A DNA stretch of 64,000 nucleotides, from NCBI RefSeq assembly GCF_007004725.1, contig NZ_ML660169.1, positions 186,001 to 250,000 on the forward strand, in the 5' to 3' direction. Source of the stretch: Aliikangiella coralliicola (lineage in GTDB: Bacteria; Pseudomonadota; Gammaproteobacteria; Enterobacterales; Kangiellaceae). Below the pieces are notes generated by a model. It saw only the letters and a program-made list of their open reading frames with translations, ran no database searches and was not told where the DNA came from. The translations under genes were made by a program, and so were the position numbers. This document shows, piece by piece, positions 1 to 6,829 of this stretch. Positions within the stretch are counted from its first letter, which is position 1, and the number at the start of each line of letters is the position of its first letter.

Positions 1-415
1 AATACTGATAGGCACCACCGCCAACTAAATGATATGGATGCTTCAAATCGAGTTGTCGATTAATCGAGAAAATCACATCGTCAGCATTGAATTCTCGGGT
101 CGGTTTAAAATAAGCAGTCTGATGAAATTGAACGCCTTTTCTGAGCTTAAACGTGTACTCAGTTTTATCACCTGAAATATCCCAGCTGGTTGCCAATGAG
201 GGAATGACATTAGTTGTACCAGGCTCGAACTCTAGTAGCCGATTATAAATTGTTAAAGATGTGGCATTTCTTCCAGTGCCAGATAGTATTTTCTGAGGAT
301 TGAATGACTCAGGACTACCTTCTGAACAATAGACAATATTCTCACTAGCGTAAGCAATCGGGCTTGTTAGCAAACCGGCTAAAAATATTTGAATAAATTT
401 ATTTGAAAGTTTCAT
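1..415 (-). CDS. DppA/SapA-type peptide-binding protein (partial, N-terminal 138 residues)
   Basis: This is the N-terminal part of a periplasmic solute-binding protein of ABC transporter family 5 (SBP_bac_5), which delivers di- or oligopeptides to an inner-membrane permease. I translated it by hand from the ATG at 415. It begins with a signal peptide (MKLSNKFIQIFLAGLLTSPI, then AYA-S as likely cleavage site). Mature sequence VYCSEGSPESFNPQ, YNRLLEFEPGTT, YTFKLRKGVQFH and FKPTREFNADDVIFS closely follows the start of E. coli DppA. The rest lies beyond position 1. It is 168 bp downstream of the oxygenase gene on the same strand, so it may or may not share that operon. Confidence 0.85.
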   Translation of the reverse strand, partial: MKLSNKFIQIFLAGLLTSPIAYASENIVYCSEGSPESFNPQKILSGTGRNATSLTIYNRLLEFEPGTTNVIPSLATSWDISGDKTEYTFKLRKGVQFHQTAYFKPTREFNADDVIFSINRQLDLKHPYHLVGGGAYQY

Positions 416-583: not shown

Positions 584-1366
584 TTATGACCAAAGATTTA
601 AACTACCGTCTTTCTGAAGGCCCATAAATGACGTCTGAGAAATTCGACTCTGATCTTTTCTACCTAAAATCTCATGAAAATTCTGAGTATTAAATATAAT
701 AAGATCGCCAACTTTAGGGCTTGTTTTCAAGTGGTCTTCCCGCTCTAACACTTCATAAGGAAAGTAGTAGTCTCCGGGTACCTTCATCTTATCGTTTTCA
801 TCGGTGTGGATGGTGTCATATATAATCAGCTCACCATCGATTTCGTTGACACAATAGTAAATATTCCAGGTTAGCTGCCTGGTGATTTCAGTCACCGCCC
901 AATCTTGCTTGATGTGACTGGGAGCGTGATCGGCGTGAAGTTTTCCATGCCCTTTAAAACTTCGAAAGGCGCCGGCAAAATACTCTCCGAATTTCGGCTC
1001 ATAAAATAGACCTGATGCTCTATTCGCTTTTTTCTCTATTGCTTCAATAACCATTTGAACAGGGTCAATATCTAATCCCCGATACATATCCTGAACGGTC
1101 TTTCGAGCCGCTCGAATTTTCTCAAAATAAACAGACTTGGGATCGTGAGCCCACTGGTTATGACAAACCCCAATATGATTAACCGGGATATCTTTCAAGT
1201 GTTCATAACCAGCAAAGCTTTCAGCCTTCAGCCGTTCAGCAACGACTTCACAAATTTCTTTCGATAAGAAATTCTCAACAATGATCCCGGGAATCTTGAA
1301 ATCAAACAGTAAGTTGAGGTTTTCTTCGTTAAGTTCACATAATTCGTTTTTAATCCAGTTTCCCAT
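584..1366 (-). CDS. 2-oxoglutarate/Fe(II)-dependent oxygenase, BesD-like
   Basis: A 260-residue non-heme iron oxygenase. The facial triad is visible as H144-A-D146 and distal H231 (FNTQNFHE). R241, ten residues on, is the probable 2-oxoglutarate carboxylate anchor. The segment from 128 to 172 (GEYFAGAFRSF, LHADHAP, RQLTWNIYYC) resembles the BesD group of freestanding amino-acid halogenases and hydroxylases. The carboxylate ligand D146 is present, where halogenases carry Gly or Ala, so hydroxylation of a free amino acid is predicted rather than chlorination. It is the last gene of the operon, 11 bp after the MFS gene. The substrate cannot be read from sequence; lysine or another cationic amino acid is a guess from the family and from the diiron enzyme in the same operon. 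Confidence 0.75.
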   Translation of the reverse strand: MGNWIKNELCELNEENLNLLFDFKIPGIIVENFLSKEICEVVAERLKAESFAGYEHLKDIPVNHIGVCHNQWAHDPKSVYFEKIRAARKTVQDMYRGLDIDPVQMVIEAIEKKANRASGLFYEPKFGEYFAGAFRSFKGHGKLHADHAPSHIKQDWAVTEITRQLTWNIYYCVNEIDGELIIYDTIHTDENDKMKVPGDYYFPYEVLEREDHLKTSPKVGDLIIFNTQNFHEILGRKDQSRISQTSFMGLQKDGSLNLWS

Positions 1367-1377
1367 TTTTCTATCCC

Positions 1378-2655
1378 CTATTCAGCGAATACTTTTTGGC
1401 TTAAATCAGATGAAGATGATTGATAAAGCCGTTTGTATATCGCATTTGAAGCAAAAATTATTAAAAGGTATGCCGACATGAAAAGAAGCGTTGTTTTAAC
1501 AAAGTCGTTTCCGAAATAGTCGAGTAGACCACCTAAAATTGTTGCAATAACGCTGGCAAGCAAACAACCTATTGAAAAAGATATTCCAAAAATTGAACCT
1601 AGCTGCCCTTTAGGCGCAAAAGTCACAATGCCTGAATATCCCATCATCCATATAAATTCAAAGATGAATACCATGGCGGTAAAAAAGACTGCAGCAAAAA
1701 TCGGTATTTTGATCCATACACTCAAAACGTAAACAGTGAAGGCAACAATTGAAAGCGCGATCGTTAAGTGTCGAGTCATTCGAAAGTCTCTTTCAAACAA
1801 TTTCGTTTGTTTGCAAAACAGTGAGAATGCAGAAGACCCTGCGACAATCGCCAAACTTGCCAACACATAAGATGCGGAAACAGCTGATGCATCCAACTTT
1901 AATCCTTCAATCGGATAGATTGGTTGCAATACGCTATAAGTGCCTTGAAAAAAAGTGGCGGTAATCGGCGGAAGAATTGCGCAAAAAAATAGCTTTTTAT
2001 TTGAGCTTAAGGCATCGACATATTCTTTGACTCTTTCTGAAACCTTTCGTCTTGGAGTCGCTTCCTTCTCTGACTCTGATTGCGGTGCTAGATTGTAAGT
2101 AATCAAGATTAACACCGCAGCTATTACAAACGTCACCGCATCAATTAATACAACTAATGATAACTCGAGTCTACTCGCCAGAAAGATGCCCAAAACAGCC
2201 GCGATACCAATTCCCAAATGATATCCCGTTTGCATAAATGACGCATAGTGAGTGACTTTATCGGCGGGAAACAACGTTCGCGCCGCCACGGTTTTATTAA
2301 TTCTATTAACTTGCTCGATGATTCCGCGCAACAGTAATAAAACAACAATGGGAAGATAAGCGTGATCCGAAGTAAAAAACAAAATTGGCAATGTTAATAC
2401 TGCACACCCGAAATCGAGCAAATACCAACGCTTTCGAGGCTCCATTCCGTGGTCCCAATCACTTCGGTACAATATCACGATCAACATCGGTAACCACTGT
2501 AAAGAAACAAACAATGAGGTTAATAAACCAGAGCCTGTTTCCTTGTATATTGCCATGGCAAAAACGATATGTAGTAAGACTGAACCTGCAGACGATATTG
2601 TGAATGCAGCGGTGCTTAACAGTAAATTTATTCGCCCTTTATTTAACTGGATCAC
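1378..2655 (-). CDS. MFS transporter, probable exporter of the operon product
   Basis: A 425-residue major facilitator protein with about twelve hydrophobic segments. A short cytoplasmic basic stretch (YRSDWDHGMEPRKRW, about residues 62-77) sits where the loop 2-3 signature lies, and there is a central cytoplasmic loop at about 192-215 (SESEKEATPRRKVSER). It resembles MFS_3-type or enterobactin-exporter-like proteins more than sugar importers. It sits between the ATP-grasp gene (11 bp upstream) and the oxygenase (11 bp downstream). Being embedded in the operon suggests it secretes the compound made by its neighbours or protects the producer from it. The substrate is unknown. Confidence 0.75.
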   Translation of the reverse strand: MIQLNKGRINLLLSTAAFTISSAGSVLLHIVFAMAIYKETGSGLLTSLFVSLQWLPMLIVILYRSDWDHGMEPRKRWYLLDFGCAVLTLPILFFTSDHAYLPIVVLLLLRGIIEQVNRINKTVAARTLFPADKVTHYASFMQTGYHLGIGIAAVLGIFLASRLELSLVVLIDAVTFVIAAVLILITYNLAPQSESEKEATPRRKVSERVKEYVDALSSNKKLFFCAILPPITATFFQGTYSVLQPIYPIEGLKLDASAVSASYVLASLAIVAGSSAFSLFCKQTKLFERDFRMTRHLTIALSIVAFTVYVLSVWIKIPIFAAVFFTAMVFIFEFIWMMGYSGIVTFAPKGQLGSIFGISFSIGCLLASVIATILGGLLDYFGNDFVKTTLLFMSAYLLIIFASNAIYKRLYQSSSSDLSQKVFAE

Positions 2656-2666
2656 TTCTTCTTCCC

Positions 2667-3896
2667 CTATTGAATAACTGTGTTATCCGCCACGAAATTA
2701 ACCGCTGATGCCGCATTATTTTTAGCATCGAATTGATTTTTACCGGTACACATCACTTGTAGTATCCAGCTAAAATTCGAATCAATTGACTCAATTTTTT
2801 CACCGACACCATGGTGTAACCAAACTTCCTCAACTCCTTCTAGTGCTTTGATTTCATCAACAGACGGCATCTTGTCGATAGTACCTGCCGAATCGCTGAC
2901 AAAACATTTCCATGCGGCGCCTTTAACGTGCGGGTATAAACGGCCTTCTTCTTTTATGTTACCCAGACAAAGTTCAACACAATCGCCAACGATTGACCGA
3001 GAAGTCGCAAGATCCATCATGACCGAGTGTCCACTACCACCAACCCTGCTGTTAACTTCTACTAATCGTGGACCTTGTTGGGTAAGAATTAACTCGACAT
3101 GACTTGGACCAAAGTCATAGCCAATTGCATCAAGTGCATCACATGCTTTTTTCTCAACAATTTCGCGAATGTCATTGTCCAGAGGAAATGAAGCCCCCGT
3201 TTCAACGCTATCTTTTATGACATCTCTGTCCGAAACGCCGACAACCTGATGGTGACCTTCAGAAGTTGTTAGTATTTCAACGCTAACCAGGTCACCCTGT
3301 AAGAAGTCCTCAACAACAAACGCTGAGGATATCCACTCTTCGTCAATCTGACTGAACTTTGCAACAATATCATTCACATCGTCTTGACTGTTGCATACCG
3401 TTGCTCCCAGACTAGAATGCCCCTGAACCGGCTTTAAAAAACACGGATAACTTAAGGTATCTTTGATATCGACTAACTCAGTGATCGCAGAAACCTTAAT
3501 ACAACTGACCTTCTCAACGCCTTTCTCTTCAATAACTTTACGAAAACGAAACTTATCTTGTGCAATATTGATCGCTTCTATGTTCGACCCTGCTAATCCA
3601 AGCCTTTGTGCCAAGGTCGCAGTGACCTTGGTTCTGATTTCCGCAAAAGTCAACACCGCATCAACTTGGCCAACTTCGGTTTCAATTGCCTTGGTCAACT
3701 CGTCAATATCATCAGAATTTTTCACTTCGATCACTTGGTCGGCGTGTTCAAGTTTGTACAAACAAGACTCAGGAAACCAATGTTTAAAACGATCAAAGCT
3801 ATCTGTTATCAGTACCGACTTATAACCTCTTTCGCTACAATATTTAAACGTGTCAAGACCGCTGAAATTGGTTTCAATAAATACGATTGTTTTCAT
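2667..3896 (-). CDS. ATP-grasp carboxylate-amine ligase
   Basis: A 409-residue ATP-grasp enzyme of the L-amino-acid ligase/carbamoyl-phosphate-synthase-like type. It should join a carboxylate to an amine through an acyl-phosphate. Visible landmarks are the ATP-binding strand PCFLKPVQGHSSLGATV (about 153-169), the hinge region FVVEDFLQGDLVSVEIL and the metal-binding HVELILTQQGPRLVEVNSRVGGSGH (about 274-298; E and N ligands). I chose the ATG at 3896 over a GTG at 3908 because a GAGG ribosome-binding site lies 6 bases before it and overlaps the stop of the upstream diiron gene. In the bes pathway a ligase of this fold (BesA) makes a gamma-glutamyl dipeptide; an equivalent peptide-forming role is inferred here. 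Confidence 0.8.
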   Translation of the reverse strand: MKTIVFIETNFSGLDTFKYCSERGYKSVLITDSFDRFKHWFPESCLYKLEHADQVIEVKNSDDIDELTKAIETEVGQVDAVLTFAEIRTKVTATLAQRLGLAGSNIEAINIAQDKFRFRKVIEEKGVEKVSCIKVSAITELVDIKDTLSYPCFLKPVQGHSSLGATVCNSQDDVNDIVAKFSQIDEEWISSAFVVEDFLQGDLVSVEILTTSEGHHQVVGVSDRDVIKDSVETGASFPLDNDIREIVEKKACDALDAIGYDFGPSHVELILTQQGPRLVEVNSRVGGSGHSVMMDLATSRSIVGDCVELCLGNIKEEGRLYPHVKGAAWKCFVSDSAGTIDKMPSVDEIKALEGVEEVWLHHGVGEKIESIDSNFSWILQVMCTGKNQFDAKNNAASAVNFVADNTVIQ

Positions 3897-3904
3897 GTTT
3901 AACC

Positions 3905-4720
3905 TCACGCAGACGCTTTCATGCTAGATGCGATGTTGATTAAACGTGCATTTTGATCCCAGAATCGGTGCCAATAATCGATACCTGCGTCAAAAGATTC
4001 TTCAAACTCTCCTCGATCATCATCGGTGTTGCAAAACCGAAGGAAGTTAGCAACCGAGTGACGAATGTGCTCAGTTTCATCAGCTCGATGAATTTTAAAG
4101 AACGGGCTTTTAGAGAGTATTTCTGAGCTTGACTCATCGTGACATAAACAATCAAATAGCATTTCGATGTTTTCTTCTGCGATTATTTCAAAACTCAGCA
4201 ACAGACCAACAATACCTGCCTGGCTCTTAGTGTTGACTAGTGTTTTATCTAATACATCAAGAATTTCTTTAATTGATGAAGTTGAAGGACCATCCACTCT
4301 GTTCACACCAATCTCTTCGATGGCTTCTAAAAACAAGTTTGAGTGGATAAAGTTTTTATCCCGCCCACCTAGCTCATCGTAAGCAATTTGAATTAAATGA
4401 TGCTGCCTTTCAGGGTCATCAGTCATTGTCACCGCTTTTGTGATGAAGACAGGTACGTAACATGTGAAGTCATACCATGCACTTGCCATAGTTTGTGCAG
4501 CAATCATTGAACGATTACTACAGGTTCTCTGGTTCTCAAGCGTTGCACGGATATTGATGAAGACATTTCTTTTTTGTGCTTTTTCAGTGAAATATTTTGT
4601 CCATCGAATGACTTCTGGGTGATCATAGTCATATTCACTTTCCGGAATCAAATAGCGAATATTTTCTTTTTTCTCTTTGTTATTATTGTTCATTTCTTTA
4701 CTTGCTTCTACGTTTTCCAC
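3905..4720 (-). CDS. heme-oxygenase-like diiron oxidase (HDO), BesC-like
   Basis: A 271-residue all-helical protein of the iron-containing redox enzyme family (heme-oxygenase-like diiron oxidases: BesC, UndA, SznF, CADD). Probable metal ligands are E116 and H126 in YDELGGRDKNFIHSNLF, an acidic cluster at 178-186, and the H-x3-E-x2-H motif H211/E215/H218 in KIHRADETEHIRH. BesC-type members cleave the C-C bond of a lysine derivative to give a terminal alkene. The start is a GTG supported by AGGGG 7 bases upstream; a downstream ATG at 4693 has a poorer site. The N-terminal 20 residues are Asn/Lys/Glu rich and probably disordered. It is the first gene of the operon. No PLP enzyme (BesB-like) is present in the window. 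Confidence 0.75.
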   Translation of the reverse strand: MENVEASKEMNNNNKEKKENIRYLIPESEYDYDHPEVIRWTKYFTEKAQKRNVFINIRATLENQRTCSNRSMIAAQTMASAWYDFTCYVPVFITKAVTMTDDPERQHHLIQIAYDELGGRDKNFIHSNLFLEAIEEIGVNRVDGPSTSSIKEILDVLDKTLVNTKSQAGIVGLLLSFEIIAEENIEMLFDCLCHDESSSEILSKSPFFKIHRADETEHIRHSVANFLRFCNTDDDRGEFEESFDAGIDYWHRFWDQNARLINIASSMKASA

Positions 4721-5749
4721 AACAATTCCCCTTTCTAAAGAATCCTAGATTGAAACATGGTTTAACATTGAAATAATGTTTAACTTTGAACAATTGACAG
4801 TATTTTTGAATTGACTTAAATCGTAAAAACAACTTCCATAGTAACAACAGTCCATAATTGACTTTAATCAACAGCAACTTTTACATCGGAAACTCACGAT
4901 TAAAACAACCAGAAAAAAAGAGCTATTAGTTGCTAGCGCAACCAATAGCTTTCAAAATCAAGGATAAACATTTCTAAACAACTATTCGTTCAGAAAAGAA
5001 CTACCGAACCGCTCTTAACTAAAACAAATTGCTGCCTCCCATAATAAAACTTAATTCATTTTCAAAAACAGAATCAGAATCAAGCTGCACATTAATCTAC
5101 AGGCAAAAATGTTTTTTGATAATCACAAAAATATCTAAATATATTGTTCAGAAAAAAAATACAGAAGCAACCCAGTCAAAAAAAGGGCGTACGCAAGTCG
5201 TGAACAAGAGGCTAATTATTACAGGACTATGAAATAAAAAACCATGCATCAAAAAAAGTTCACAAGCATTCAAACAAAAAAATAATTATTATTTAGCCAA
5301 CCTTAACAGTTCAATCTTCAACCTGTCTGAACGCTTCAAAAAACAAAAAAAACAAATTCAATATTTTCACCTAAAAAAAGATACTAAGTTTAATTTTGTA
5401 TTTTTACTGAGGAACGATAAAATTGAATAGGCTTTTCAACTCATACAAATTTTTCAACACTTGGAAAGCGTTGTACCTTTCGTTGTCGATCTAAGAAGAA
5501 ATGCAGCATATTTTTATTCAAAAAAATCTCCTGGCGAGAACGAAACAGCAAGTTCTCACGCTCAAATAACTAACTTTCCGTTCATTGTTTTATAACTAAC
5601 AACTCAATCCCGTAGATACCTAAACAATACAATTCAGCTATTTTCTGTTATCAAAACTACGCTTTCGCTGTAAATTGAGCCTTACTTTCCACTCAGCATT
5701 TAAGCACCTTATTATCTGGCGCTAGCACGGAAAAACAGGTGGCTTACTA
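4721..5749. other. long AT-rich intergenic region upstream of the diiron/ATP-grasp operon
   Basis: About 1 kb with no convincing protein gene on either strand, rich in A runs on the plus strand. It separates the minus-strand operon from the plus-strand DUF2000 gene. It contains a minus-strand intrinsic terminator (4912-4950). It also holds two very short minus-strand frames: 5441-5521, TTG start with AGGAG 6 bases upstream, 26 residues; and 5019-5090, GTG start, 23 residues ending IMGGSNLF. Neither is demonstrably a gene. Confidence 0.6.
4912..4950 (-). terminator. intrinsic terminator on the minus strand, about 190 bp before the diiron gene
   Basis: The arms are AGCTATTAGTTG (4921-4932) and CAACCAATAGCT (4939-4950), a 12-bp stem with one G-T pair and a 6-base loop. 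On the minus strand the stem is followed by CTTTTTTTC (4912-4920). There is no obvious minus-strand gene upstream for it to terminate. It could therefore end a small RNA or act as an attenuator in the operon leader. Confidence 0.65.
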
Positions 5750-6202
5750 ATGGAACAGAAACTAGGTAACACGATGAAAGAAGAAATAGCACCGGAAAAT
5801 AAGTGCGTATTAGTTATCGATGAAAACTTGCCGTTAGGTGTAATAGCCAATACCGCTGCCATACTCTCTATGAGTATCGGCAAAAGCTATCCAGATCTGG
5901 TTGGCTTTGAATTGGCGGATAATGACGGTTTTATTCGAGCAGGAATTACCACAAGAGCAATTCCCATTTTGAAGGGAGATGGGCGCCTTTTAAAAAAAAT
6001 AAGACCTCAACTCAAAGAATTTGAACCAGACCTGTTCGTCGTCGACCTGATCGGAGCGACAAAAACGACTAAGAGCTACGAGGAGTACGCTGACCAACTA
6101 ATACAAACACCAGAAGAAAAACTGGAATACTTTGGTATCGGTTTGTTTGGCGCTAAAAAACTTGTAAATAAATTTACCGGTAGTCTGGGGTTGCTAAGGT
6201 AA
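5750..6202 (+). CDS. DUF2000 domain protein
   Basis: A 150-residue cytoplasmic protein. The opening CVLVIDENLPLGVIANTAAILSMSIG (about 19-44) is the typical DUF2000 start, and ITTRAIPILKGD and DLFVVDLI match the rest of that family. The biochemical function of DUF2000 is not known. The ATG at 5750 has AGGTGG about 8 bases upstream; a second ATG nine codons in is possible. It lies 30 bp before the LysE-type exporter on the same strand, so the two probably form an operon. Confidence 0.75.
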   Translation: MEQKLGNTMKEEIAPENKCVLVIDENLPLGVIANTAAILSMSIGKSYPDLVGFELADNDGFIRAGITTRAIPILKGDGRLLKKIRPQLKEFEPDLFVVDLIGATKTTKSYEEYADQLIQTPEEKLEYFGIGLFGAKKLVNKFTGSLGLLR

Positions 6203-6232: not shown

Positions 6233-6829
6233 ATGTCTTTACTGATAGCAATGGCAGCATTTTCCCTGGCAATGTCAATTTCTCCGGGGCCAGTTAATAT
6301 GATAATAATATCTTCAGGTGTTAACAACGGCTTTAGACGAACAATGCCTTTTGTTTCAGGCGCCACAATTGGTTTTACTTTGTTATTACTGTTTATAGGA
6401 TTCGGCTTATATCAAGTCGTAACTAATTATCCTGCATTTTTGAAATACCTTGCTGTTGCCGGTTCCGCATTTATTATTTACATTGGTTACAAGATTGCGT
6501 CATCACTTCCTGATTTAAAAGTTAGTGAACAGAATGTTCCAAAGTTTTATGAAGGCTTTCTGTTGCAATGGATGAACCCAAAGGCTTGGATTGCCTGTGT
6601 TTCAGGCGTATCGTTATTTTCAGCGCCGGATACCCACCTAACATTGATTACATTTGTCACAGTGTACTTTATTGTTTGCTACGCATCTCTTGCCGTTTGG
6701 GCAATTTTAGGAGATAGGGTGTCAATTGTTCTTAATAGCGAGTTGAGGTTGAGAATTTTTAATATTGCCATGGGAACAATGCTAATAGGCACGTCAATTT
6801 ATTTACTTTATCTGCAGTTATTCCAGTAA
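6233..6829 (+). CDS. LysE/RhtB-family amino acid exporter
   Basis: A 198-residue inner-membrane protein with about six hydrophobic helices. The N-terminal SISPGPVNMIIISSGVNNG (about 15-33) is the LysE signature, and LLQWMNPKAWIA (about 109-120) is the second conserved motif. These proteins export amino acids or analogues. AGGAA lies about 8 bases before the ATG. It follows the DUF2000 gene closely and probably acts with it, perhaps in detoxifying an amino acid analogue; that link is inference from position only. Confidence 0.85.
   Translation: MSLLIAMAAFSLAMSISPGPVNMIIISSGVNNGFRRTMPFVSGATIGFTLLLLFIGFGLYQVVTNYPAFLKYLAVAGSAFIIYIGYKIASSLPDLKVSEQNVPKFYEGFLLQWMNPKAWIACVSGVSLFSAPDTHLTLITFVTVYFIVCYASLAVWAILGDRVSIVLNSELRLRIFNIAMGTMLIGTSIYLLYLQLFQ

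What the first reader, a model, noticed from the sequence alone, without database searches (positions are those of the whole stretch)
584..4720. Four-gene operon resembling part of the bes pathway for modified lysine
A BesC-like diiron oxidase, an ATP-grasp ligase, an MFS exporter and a BesD-like oxygenase are packed with 8-11 bp spacing on one strand. In the known bes pathway a BesD halogenase, a BesC C-C lyase and a BesA ligase cooperate, but there a PLP enzyme (BesB) is also needed. Here no PLP enzyme is present, the oxygenase keeps its aspartate ligand (D146, so hydroxylation rather than chlorination), and an exporter is included. The predicted output is a hydroxylated and unsaturated amino acid, or its dipeptide, exported by the cell, in a gammaproteobacterium rather than a Streptomyces.
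Basis: partly seen in the sequence, partly recalled or inferred. Interest (0 to 1): 0.78.

Follow-up and report, generated by a model that had tools for sequence, protein, structure and literature searches.

The report
Travelling cassette for an oxidised dipeptide
Several unrelated bacteria share a block of genes that seems to oxidise an amino acid with two iron enzymes, tie it into a dipeptide and move it across the cell membrane; the product is unknown, and the four genes first noticed are only part of the block.

Summary
The four genes are real, at the stated coordinates and spacing. The first protein is a haem-oxygenase-like diiron oxidase (HDO) with the fold and ligands of BesC's superfamily; the second an ATP-grasp L-amino-acid ligase; the third an MFS transporter. 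The oxygenase is misfiled: not BesD-like but a WelO5-family (PF22814) Fe/2OG enzyme, homologous to the other oxygenase of the bes cluster (BesE, name recalled), with an HxD motif, so probably a hydroxylase. The block exceeds four genes: a DppABCDF-type dipeptide importer, a 2Fe-2S ferredoxin and a nitroreductase continue left of the window edge; DUF2000 and a LysE exporter lie divergently upstream; a LysR gene adjoins. The four genes recur in the same order in 7 of 38 fetched oxygenase loci (Azohydromonas, three Microbulbifer, Paraburkholderia solisilvae, Vibrio sagamiensis, Pseudomonas agarici). Largely congruent gene trees, strong purifying selection and scattered hosts suggest horizontal movement as a unit. 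No BesD or BesB homologue was found near any copy. Best reading: oxidation of an amino acid by two iron enzymes, ligation to a dipeptide, export, and dipeptide (re-)import. Substrate and product are unknown. HDO plus ATP-grasp clusters are a known class, so I call this a new variant.

The parts
3905..4720 (-). [quoted passage not shown] candidate ligands E116, H126, E178, H211, E215, H218
2667..3908 (-). ATP-grasp L-amino-acid ligase (probable start ATG at 3896)
   Evidence: ATP-grasp_4 and LAL_C2 over cut-off; closest solved chain 3vot, L-amino acid ligase BL00235
1378..2655 (-). MFS transporter, probable exporter
   Evidence: PF07690 69 bits; direction of transport inferred
584..1366 (-). 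Fe(II)/2OG oxygenase, WelO5 family, BesE-like, HxD motif (H144, D146, H231, R241): predicted hydroxylase
2..415 (-). Start of DppA-type dipeptide-binding protein gene; continues outside the window (whole gene at L056 9814-11415, L056 being G000:C10:175001-187500)
   Evidence: matches E. coli DppA structures at E about 1e-187
5750..6202 (+). DUF2000 protein, divergent; orthologue lies directly upstream of the HDO in 5 of 9 close loci
   Evidence: PF09391; distant match to 2gax
6233..6829 (+). LysE-type amino-acid exporter, divergent; orthologue at the far end of the block in 7 of 9 close loci
   Evidence: PF01810; 51-67% identity

Best explanation
This is a horizontally spread natural-product block that builds a short peptide around an oxidised non-protein amino acid. 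Most likely: (1) the HDO carries out an O2-dependent oxidation of an aliphatic amino acid, by C-C scission as in BesC (which also cleaves plain L-lysine) or by desaturation; (2) the ATP-grasp ligase joins an amino acid to a partner as a dipeptide; (3) the WelO5/BesE-type Fe/2OG enzyme hydroxylates the amino acid, free or within the dipeptide; (4) MFS and LysE proteins export the dipeptide and free amino acid, while DppABCDF takes dipeptides up; (5) the ferredoxin and flavin nitroreductase may supply electrons. Shown here: gene content, conservation, folds, catalytic residues, co-inheritance. Inferred: reaction order, substrates, transport direction, redox roles, product.
For: Same four genes, same order, in 7 of 38 oxygenase loci, with DppA, LysE and other members and in the window's own genome. 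Trees of five genes, compared on the seven species common to all, share 3 or 4 of 4 splits; in the oxygenase, MFS and DppA trees Pseudomonas agarici sits with two betaproteobacteria; dN/dS 0.04-0.12 in 9 of 10 comparisons, the tenth being saturated. Catalytic residues invariant. Folds: HDO with 3b5p, BesC and HrmI; oxygenase with WelO5 22.9 and the N-substituted amino-acid dioxygenase 3w21 14.6. Ligase resembles L-amino-acid ligases. DppA positions aligned to R355 and D408 of E. coli DppA (roles recalled) are kept in 8 of 8 aligned sequences; the Acinetobacter copy was not aligned. BesC acts on L-Lys and 4-Cl-L-Lys (passages of PMC10187165). An HDO with a flavin/Fe2S2 redox partner is known from mangotoxin (PMC13185094, introduction and two of three parts of the results read).
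Against: Acinetobacter seifertii keeps transporter, oxygenase, Dpp, ferredoxin, nitroreductase and LysE, but its held genome gives no match to this HDO and its locus shows no HDO, ligase or DUF2000, so ferredoxin and nitroreductase need not serve the HDO. Paraburkholderia shows only DppA of the importer. The importer could bring in a precursor instead of recapturing a product. HDO identity to BesC is only 22-23%. The fold does not single out BesC: HrmI ties with it, a CADD-like protein scores higher and PqqC scores 17.2. HDOs with identical primary ligands can diverge in function (PMC13108848, section read). I found no product and ran no assay.
Confidence: 0.6

Rival explanations
1. A dipeptide metallophore system: the oxidised dipeptide binds a metal outside the cell, the Dpp importer brings it back, and the ferredoxin and flavoprotein release the metal by reduction, somewhat as in opine metallophore (Cnt) systems.
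For: Synthesis, export, ABC import of the peptide/nickel family and two redox proteins in one block; the Vibrio DppA-type protein also matches the CntA model below cut-off (131.6 of 800 bits).
Against: No Fur-like box above shuffled background in 10 upstream regions (lowest p 0.14); for Zur only the Azohydromonas region reaches p 0.05, which 10 tests could give by chance. The binding protein matches DppA (656.6 bits) far better than NikA (182) or CntA (131.6). No TonB receptor among the 10 proteins scanned, but most flanking genes were not scanned.
Confidence: 0.15
2. A free amino-acid antimetabolite pathway: the oxygenase and HDO make a toxic amino acid, LysE exports it, and DUF2000 protects the producer, as an AlaX-type editing protein may do in a related trio of genes.
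For: LysE in 7 of 9 close loci. A separate AlaX, oxygenase, LysE trio with distant oxygenase homologues in three records.
Against: DUF2000 has no function known to me; its only solved relative found is an uncharacterised protein, and the paper library has no paper with the word. DUF2000 was not detected in the held stretch of four of nine close loci. The idea does not explain the ligase and the dipeptide importer.
Confidence: 0.2
3. A true relative of the bes pathway that still makes a halogenated or acetylenic amino acid, with BesD and BesB supplied from elsewhere in the genome.
For: BesC-like and BesE-like enzymes together, as in Streptantibioticus cattleyicolor.
Against: No BesD or BesB homologue in the window, its left extension or the nine close loci; ligase not BesA-like. 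The rest of the genomes was not searched for BesD or BesB.
Confidence: 0.03

Closest known systems
bes cluster of Streptantibioticus (Streptomyces) cattleyicolor (beta-ethynylserine)
   Same: Holds a BesC HDO, a WelO5-like HxD oxygenase (BesE by recall), an ATP-grasp ligase and a transporter gene
   Different: Here no BesD halogenase, no BesB, a different ligase type, and MFS, LysE and a dipeptide importer
Mangotoxin mbo cluster (PMC13185094)
   Same: HDO plus ATP-grasp ligases plus a flavin/iron-sulfur redox protein
   Different: Mbo has two ligases, an arginine deiminase and one reductase with flavin and Fe2S2; no Fe/2OG oxygenase or dipeptide importer is described in the sections read
WelO5 family Fe/2OG enzymes (PF22814)
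   Different: Asp in the metal triad where WelO5 has Gly (entry 5iqu is a G166D variant), so hydroxylase predicted
Plasmid-borne HDO, aminotransferase, FAD oxidoreductase, TauD, ATP-grasp clusters of Pantoea sp. CCBC3-3-1 and Burkholderia glumae
   Same: HDO with ATP-grasp ligase and a 2OG-type oxygenase
   Different: HDO there is nearer BesC (73.3 and 64.8 bits, against 29.5 here); TauD-type oxygenase; includes a PLP enzyme
Predicted peptide operons with diiron haem-oxygenase-superfamily proteins and ATP-grasp ligases (Biol Direct 2010, PMC2922099)
   Same: Passages seen predict operons with such an oxygenase, ATP-grasp ligases, a Rieske 2Fe-2S protein and an efflux transporter
   Different: There the oxygenase is joined to a cupin domain; no dipeptide importer is mentioned in the passages seen

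Membership tests
Haem-oxygenase-like dimetal oxidases (HDO) | Seven-helix haem-oxygenase-like fold | tested here: met
Haem-oxygenase-like dimetal oxidases (HDO) | Three His and three carboxylate metal ligands | tested here: met
   E116, H126, E178, H211, E215, H218 align with BesC and are invariant in 8 of 8; sequence only, geometry not measured
Haem-oxygenase-like dimetal oxidases (HDO) | Dimetal binding and O2-dependent oxidation | not testable with these tools
   Needs protein
BesC (4-chloro-allylglycine synthase) | NCBIfam equivalog NF042919 score of 500 bits | tested here: not met
   29.5 bits
BesD lysine halogenase | Match to NF042920 and HxG in place of HxD | tested here: not met
   No NF042920 match at E 0.1; profile comparison 0.1%; H144-x-D146
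WelO5 family (PF22814) | Score above gathering cut-off, WelO5 fold | tested here: met
WelO5-type halogenase | Gly instead of Asp in the metal triad | tested here: not met
   D146 invariant in 10 of 10
BesE-type hydroxylase | Homology to the second bes oxygenase and HxD | tested here: met
   hhalign 96.6%, E 6e-10; blastp 23.5%, E 8e-11. The name BesE is recalled
BesE-type hydroxylase | Hydroxylation of a ligase-made dipeptide | not testable with these tools
   Needs assay; BesE's own reaction is recalled
bes pathway | BesA, BesB, BesC and BesD together | tested here: not met
   BesB and BesD not found in the window, its left extension and nine close loci; ligase not BesA-like
L-amino-acid ligases (ATP-grasp) | ATP-grasp plus LAL C-terminal domain | tested here: met
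   PF13535 54.9 bits over 27, PF18603 35.1 over 29.4
Dpp dipeptide importer | DppA equivalog cut-off (NF043070, 1005 bits) | tested here: not met
   656.6 bits for the Vibrio orthologue (the window's own was not scanned); nearest solved chains are DppA and the R355 and D408 positions are kept

The most novel reading that the evidence does not exclude
A BesC-to-BesE two-metal-enzyme route without halogenation, working with an L-amino-acid ligase, makes a new oxidised dipeptide that the cell both secretes and takes back through its own dedicated DppABCDF importer, so that the dipeptide acts as a metal carrier or cell-to-cell signal and not only as an antimetabolite.
Probability: 0.25. Interest if true: 0.78.

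Novelty: new variant of a known kind. Interest (0 to 1): 0.6.

Why it matters
HDOs catalyse unusual reactions on amino acids and only about a dozen are characterised (PMC13108848, section read). This block offers a compact, co-inherited set of enzymes, with orthologues in named cultured species, in which an HDO and a WelO5-fold hydroxylase are tied to a peptide ligase and, unusually, to a dipeptide importer. It is easy to test in vitro and could yield a new amino acid or dipeptide. It also suggests that part of the bes logic exists without its halogenase.

Tried and rejected
Rejected: BesD identity of the oxygenase. Rejected: BesA identity of the ligase. Not supported: Fur, Zur, MetJ or ArgR control (simple consensus match in 10 upstream regions with 100 letter shuffles each; of 40 tests the lowest p were 0.02 for ArgR and 0.05 for Zur, both in the Azohydromonas region, whose start I had placed by hand). 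A chance neighbourhood is unlikely given.

Led nowhere: HDO protein against viral contigs and plasmids; HDO protein in 295 order genomes and 369 class genomes, HDO profile in 398 phylum genomes: in each only the window's own genome matched, and the samples overlap. Oxygenase alignments in viral contigs gave none. The oxygenase in plasmids gave 9 records, 8 of them under 60% identity; the ligase gave 269 records, all under 60%. PF22814 is rare: 5 of 274 class genomes at E 1e-5, own included. BesC and a Pantoea HDO found no HDO beside the 29 distant oxygenases. DUF2000 as a single sequence has no solved relative. Paper searches listed no description of this block; each shows at most 20 titles. 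The list of at least 25 HDO plus ATP-grasp cluster types in PMC13185094 sits in supplements that I could not read, so it may include this one. PMC12123629 held nothing on the bes genes in its stored text; of PMC12614342 I saw outline and passages. Families not listed or 143 (BesD, for example) are not excluded by absence.

Limits: I used the oxygenase as bait, in a pattern-based scan, so co-occurrence is measured from its side and some copies may be missed. The HDO search of seven of these genomes agreed: 5 with the block positive, 2 without it negative. Flanks were 8 kb at most, and several loci are cut short. In one search the BesB row was translated in a wrong frame and is void; one search used the right frame. 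The split comparison leaves out Pseudomonas agarici. In one search a list of single-residue lookups read gapped rows and is void; residue numbers come.

Full report
OBSERVATION. The four ORFs are present, intact and tightly spaced on the minus strand. Pfam places them as Haem_oxygenas_2, ATP-grasp with LAL_C2, MFS_1, and WelO5 (PF22814). The gaps are 8, 11 and 11 bp with the ligase ATG at 3896. The host genome is 7.04 Mb in 22 contigs; it gives one match to the HDO family and one to the oxygenase. Its 16S matches 571 plasmid-collection records; the 12 best are gammaproteobacteria at 85.9-87.7% (taxonomy of the names recalled). The genus is not named by any tool (Kangiellaceae, perhaps Aliikangiella, is my guess from relatives' genome sizes).

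THE LIGASE AND TRANSPORTERS. The ligase has the LAL C-terminal domain and is closest to L-amino acid ligase BL00235. It is not BesA-like. The left extension of the window (L056) carries complete genes for DppA, DppB, DppC, DppD, DppF, a 2Fe-2S ferredoxin and a nitroreductase on the same strand, then a LysR gene in the other direction. The DppA-type protein matches E. coli DppA structures at E about 1e-187. The positions of R355 and D408, which I recall as the residues that hold the dipeptide ends, are kept in 8 of 8 aligned sequences. Upstream, divergent, are DUF2000 and LysE.

CONSERVATION. One pattern-based scan of the genome collection (84,980 species) with an oxygenase alignment gave 38 loci: nine at 58-70% identity and 29 more distant, one of these a short fragment. 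All four genes, same order, are in 7 of the 38; one more (Acinetobacter seifertii) has oxygenase and MFS; the other 30 show no HDO hit in the stretch held, though one has a distant ATP-grasp match. Among the nine close loci: DppA in 8, DppB in 7, LysE in 7, ferredoxin in 7 (six by tblastn, Acinetobacter by Pfam), nitroreductase in 5, DUF2000 in 5, LysR in 4. The held genomes of A. seifertii and Xenorhabdus vietnamensis give no match to this HDO; five others searched at the same time do. The oxygenase is rare inside genera: 3 of 48 Microbulbifer, 1 of 109 sampled Acinetobacter, 3 of 30 Xenorhabdus of which one close. In three samples of 295, 369 and 398 genomes the HDO was found only in the window's own genome.

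EVOLUTION. Trees of HDO, ligase, MFS, oxygenase and DppA, compared on the seven species common to all, share 3 or 4 of 4 internal splits. Pseudomonas agarici, a gammaproteobacterium not in that comparison because its ligase gene is split, groups with the betaproteobacteria Paraburkholderia and Azohydromonas in the oxygenase, MFS and DppA trees. Between Microbulbifer species dN/dS is 0.04-0.12 in 9 of 10 comparisons; for one HDO pair dS was saturated and the ratio is void. The block behaves as a unit that moves between hosts and stays functional.

MECHANISM. I propose that the HDO oxidises an amino acid (C-C scission as in BesC, which also fragments L-Lys; or desaturation), that the ligase makes a dipeptide, and that the BesE-like enzyme adds a hydroxyl group. 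MFS and LysE would export, Dpp import. The ferredoxin and nitroreductase recall MboB, a flavin and Fe2S2 protein that feeds the HDO MboA. Against this, A. seifertii keeps both without the HDO. The importer is the strangest part: it may recapture the product (metal carrier, signal) or bring in a precursor. Nothing here decides.

COMPARISON. HDO plus ATP-grasp clusters are a recognised class: Badding et al. report 1447 HDOs near an ATP-grasp gene and at least 25 cluster types (PMC13185094), and a 2010 paper already predicted peptide operons with diiron oxygenases of this superfamily, ATP-grasp ligases and an efflux transporter (PMC2922099, passages). The cluster list of Badding et al. is in supplements not open to me. 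My searches of the paper library listed no description of this block. I therefore call it a new variant of a known kind.

Noticed in passing
L016:2256-4365 (Acinetobacter johnsonii 6.4 kb plasmid), L008:414-2501, L068:377-2473: A recurrent trio in the same order in three records: AlaX-like tRNA-editing protein (PF07973 in L016 and L068, by tblastn in L008), a distant 2OG oxygenase homologue and a LysE exporter; looks like a toxic amino acid with translation-level self-protection.
   Followed up: partly
L025:6770-15302 (Acinetobacter seifertii): Reduced version of the block: MFS, oxygenase, DppABCDF, ferredoxin, nitroreductase, LysE without HDO, ligase or DUF2000.
   Followed up: partly
L024:5429-6714 (Pseudomonas agarici): The ligase gene is split into two overlapping ORFs in different frames; a frameshift or a sequencing error. 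A transposase gene lies upstream of the block (L024:2148-3686).
   Followed up: no
L026:1585-8774 (Xenorhabdus vietnamensis) and L009:9001-9183 (Xenorhabdus sp. TH1 plasmid): Close oxygenase orthologue without the block, near a P450, KAS III-like and acyl-CoA dehydrogenase genes; in TH1 only a C-terminal stretch of 61 residues at 69% identity.
   Followed up: partly
L038:7953-13622 (Chromobacterium alticapitis): WelO5-like oxygenase next to a PF10014 2OG dioxygenase, two ATP-grasp proteins and an FAD-binding protein.
   Followed up: no
L014:7910-13958 (Pantoea plasmid) and L015:7813-14092 (Burkholderia glumae plasmid): BesC-like HDO, PLP aminotransferase, FAD oxidoreductase, TauD and ATP-grasp clusters on plasmids; the Pantoea plasmid also has phage portal and head genes.
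   Followed up: no
window 4760-4790: Two near-identical copies of GTTTAAC(A/T)TTGAA, 18 bp start to start, just upstream of the HDO start; possible regulator site.
   Followed up: no
L023:2538-3617 (Vibrio sagamiensis): A PLP-dependent enzyme of the PF00291 type about 0.6 kb upstream of the block, seen in this locus only; link to the block unknown.
   Followed up: no
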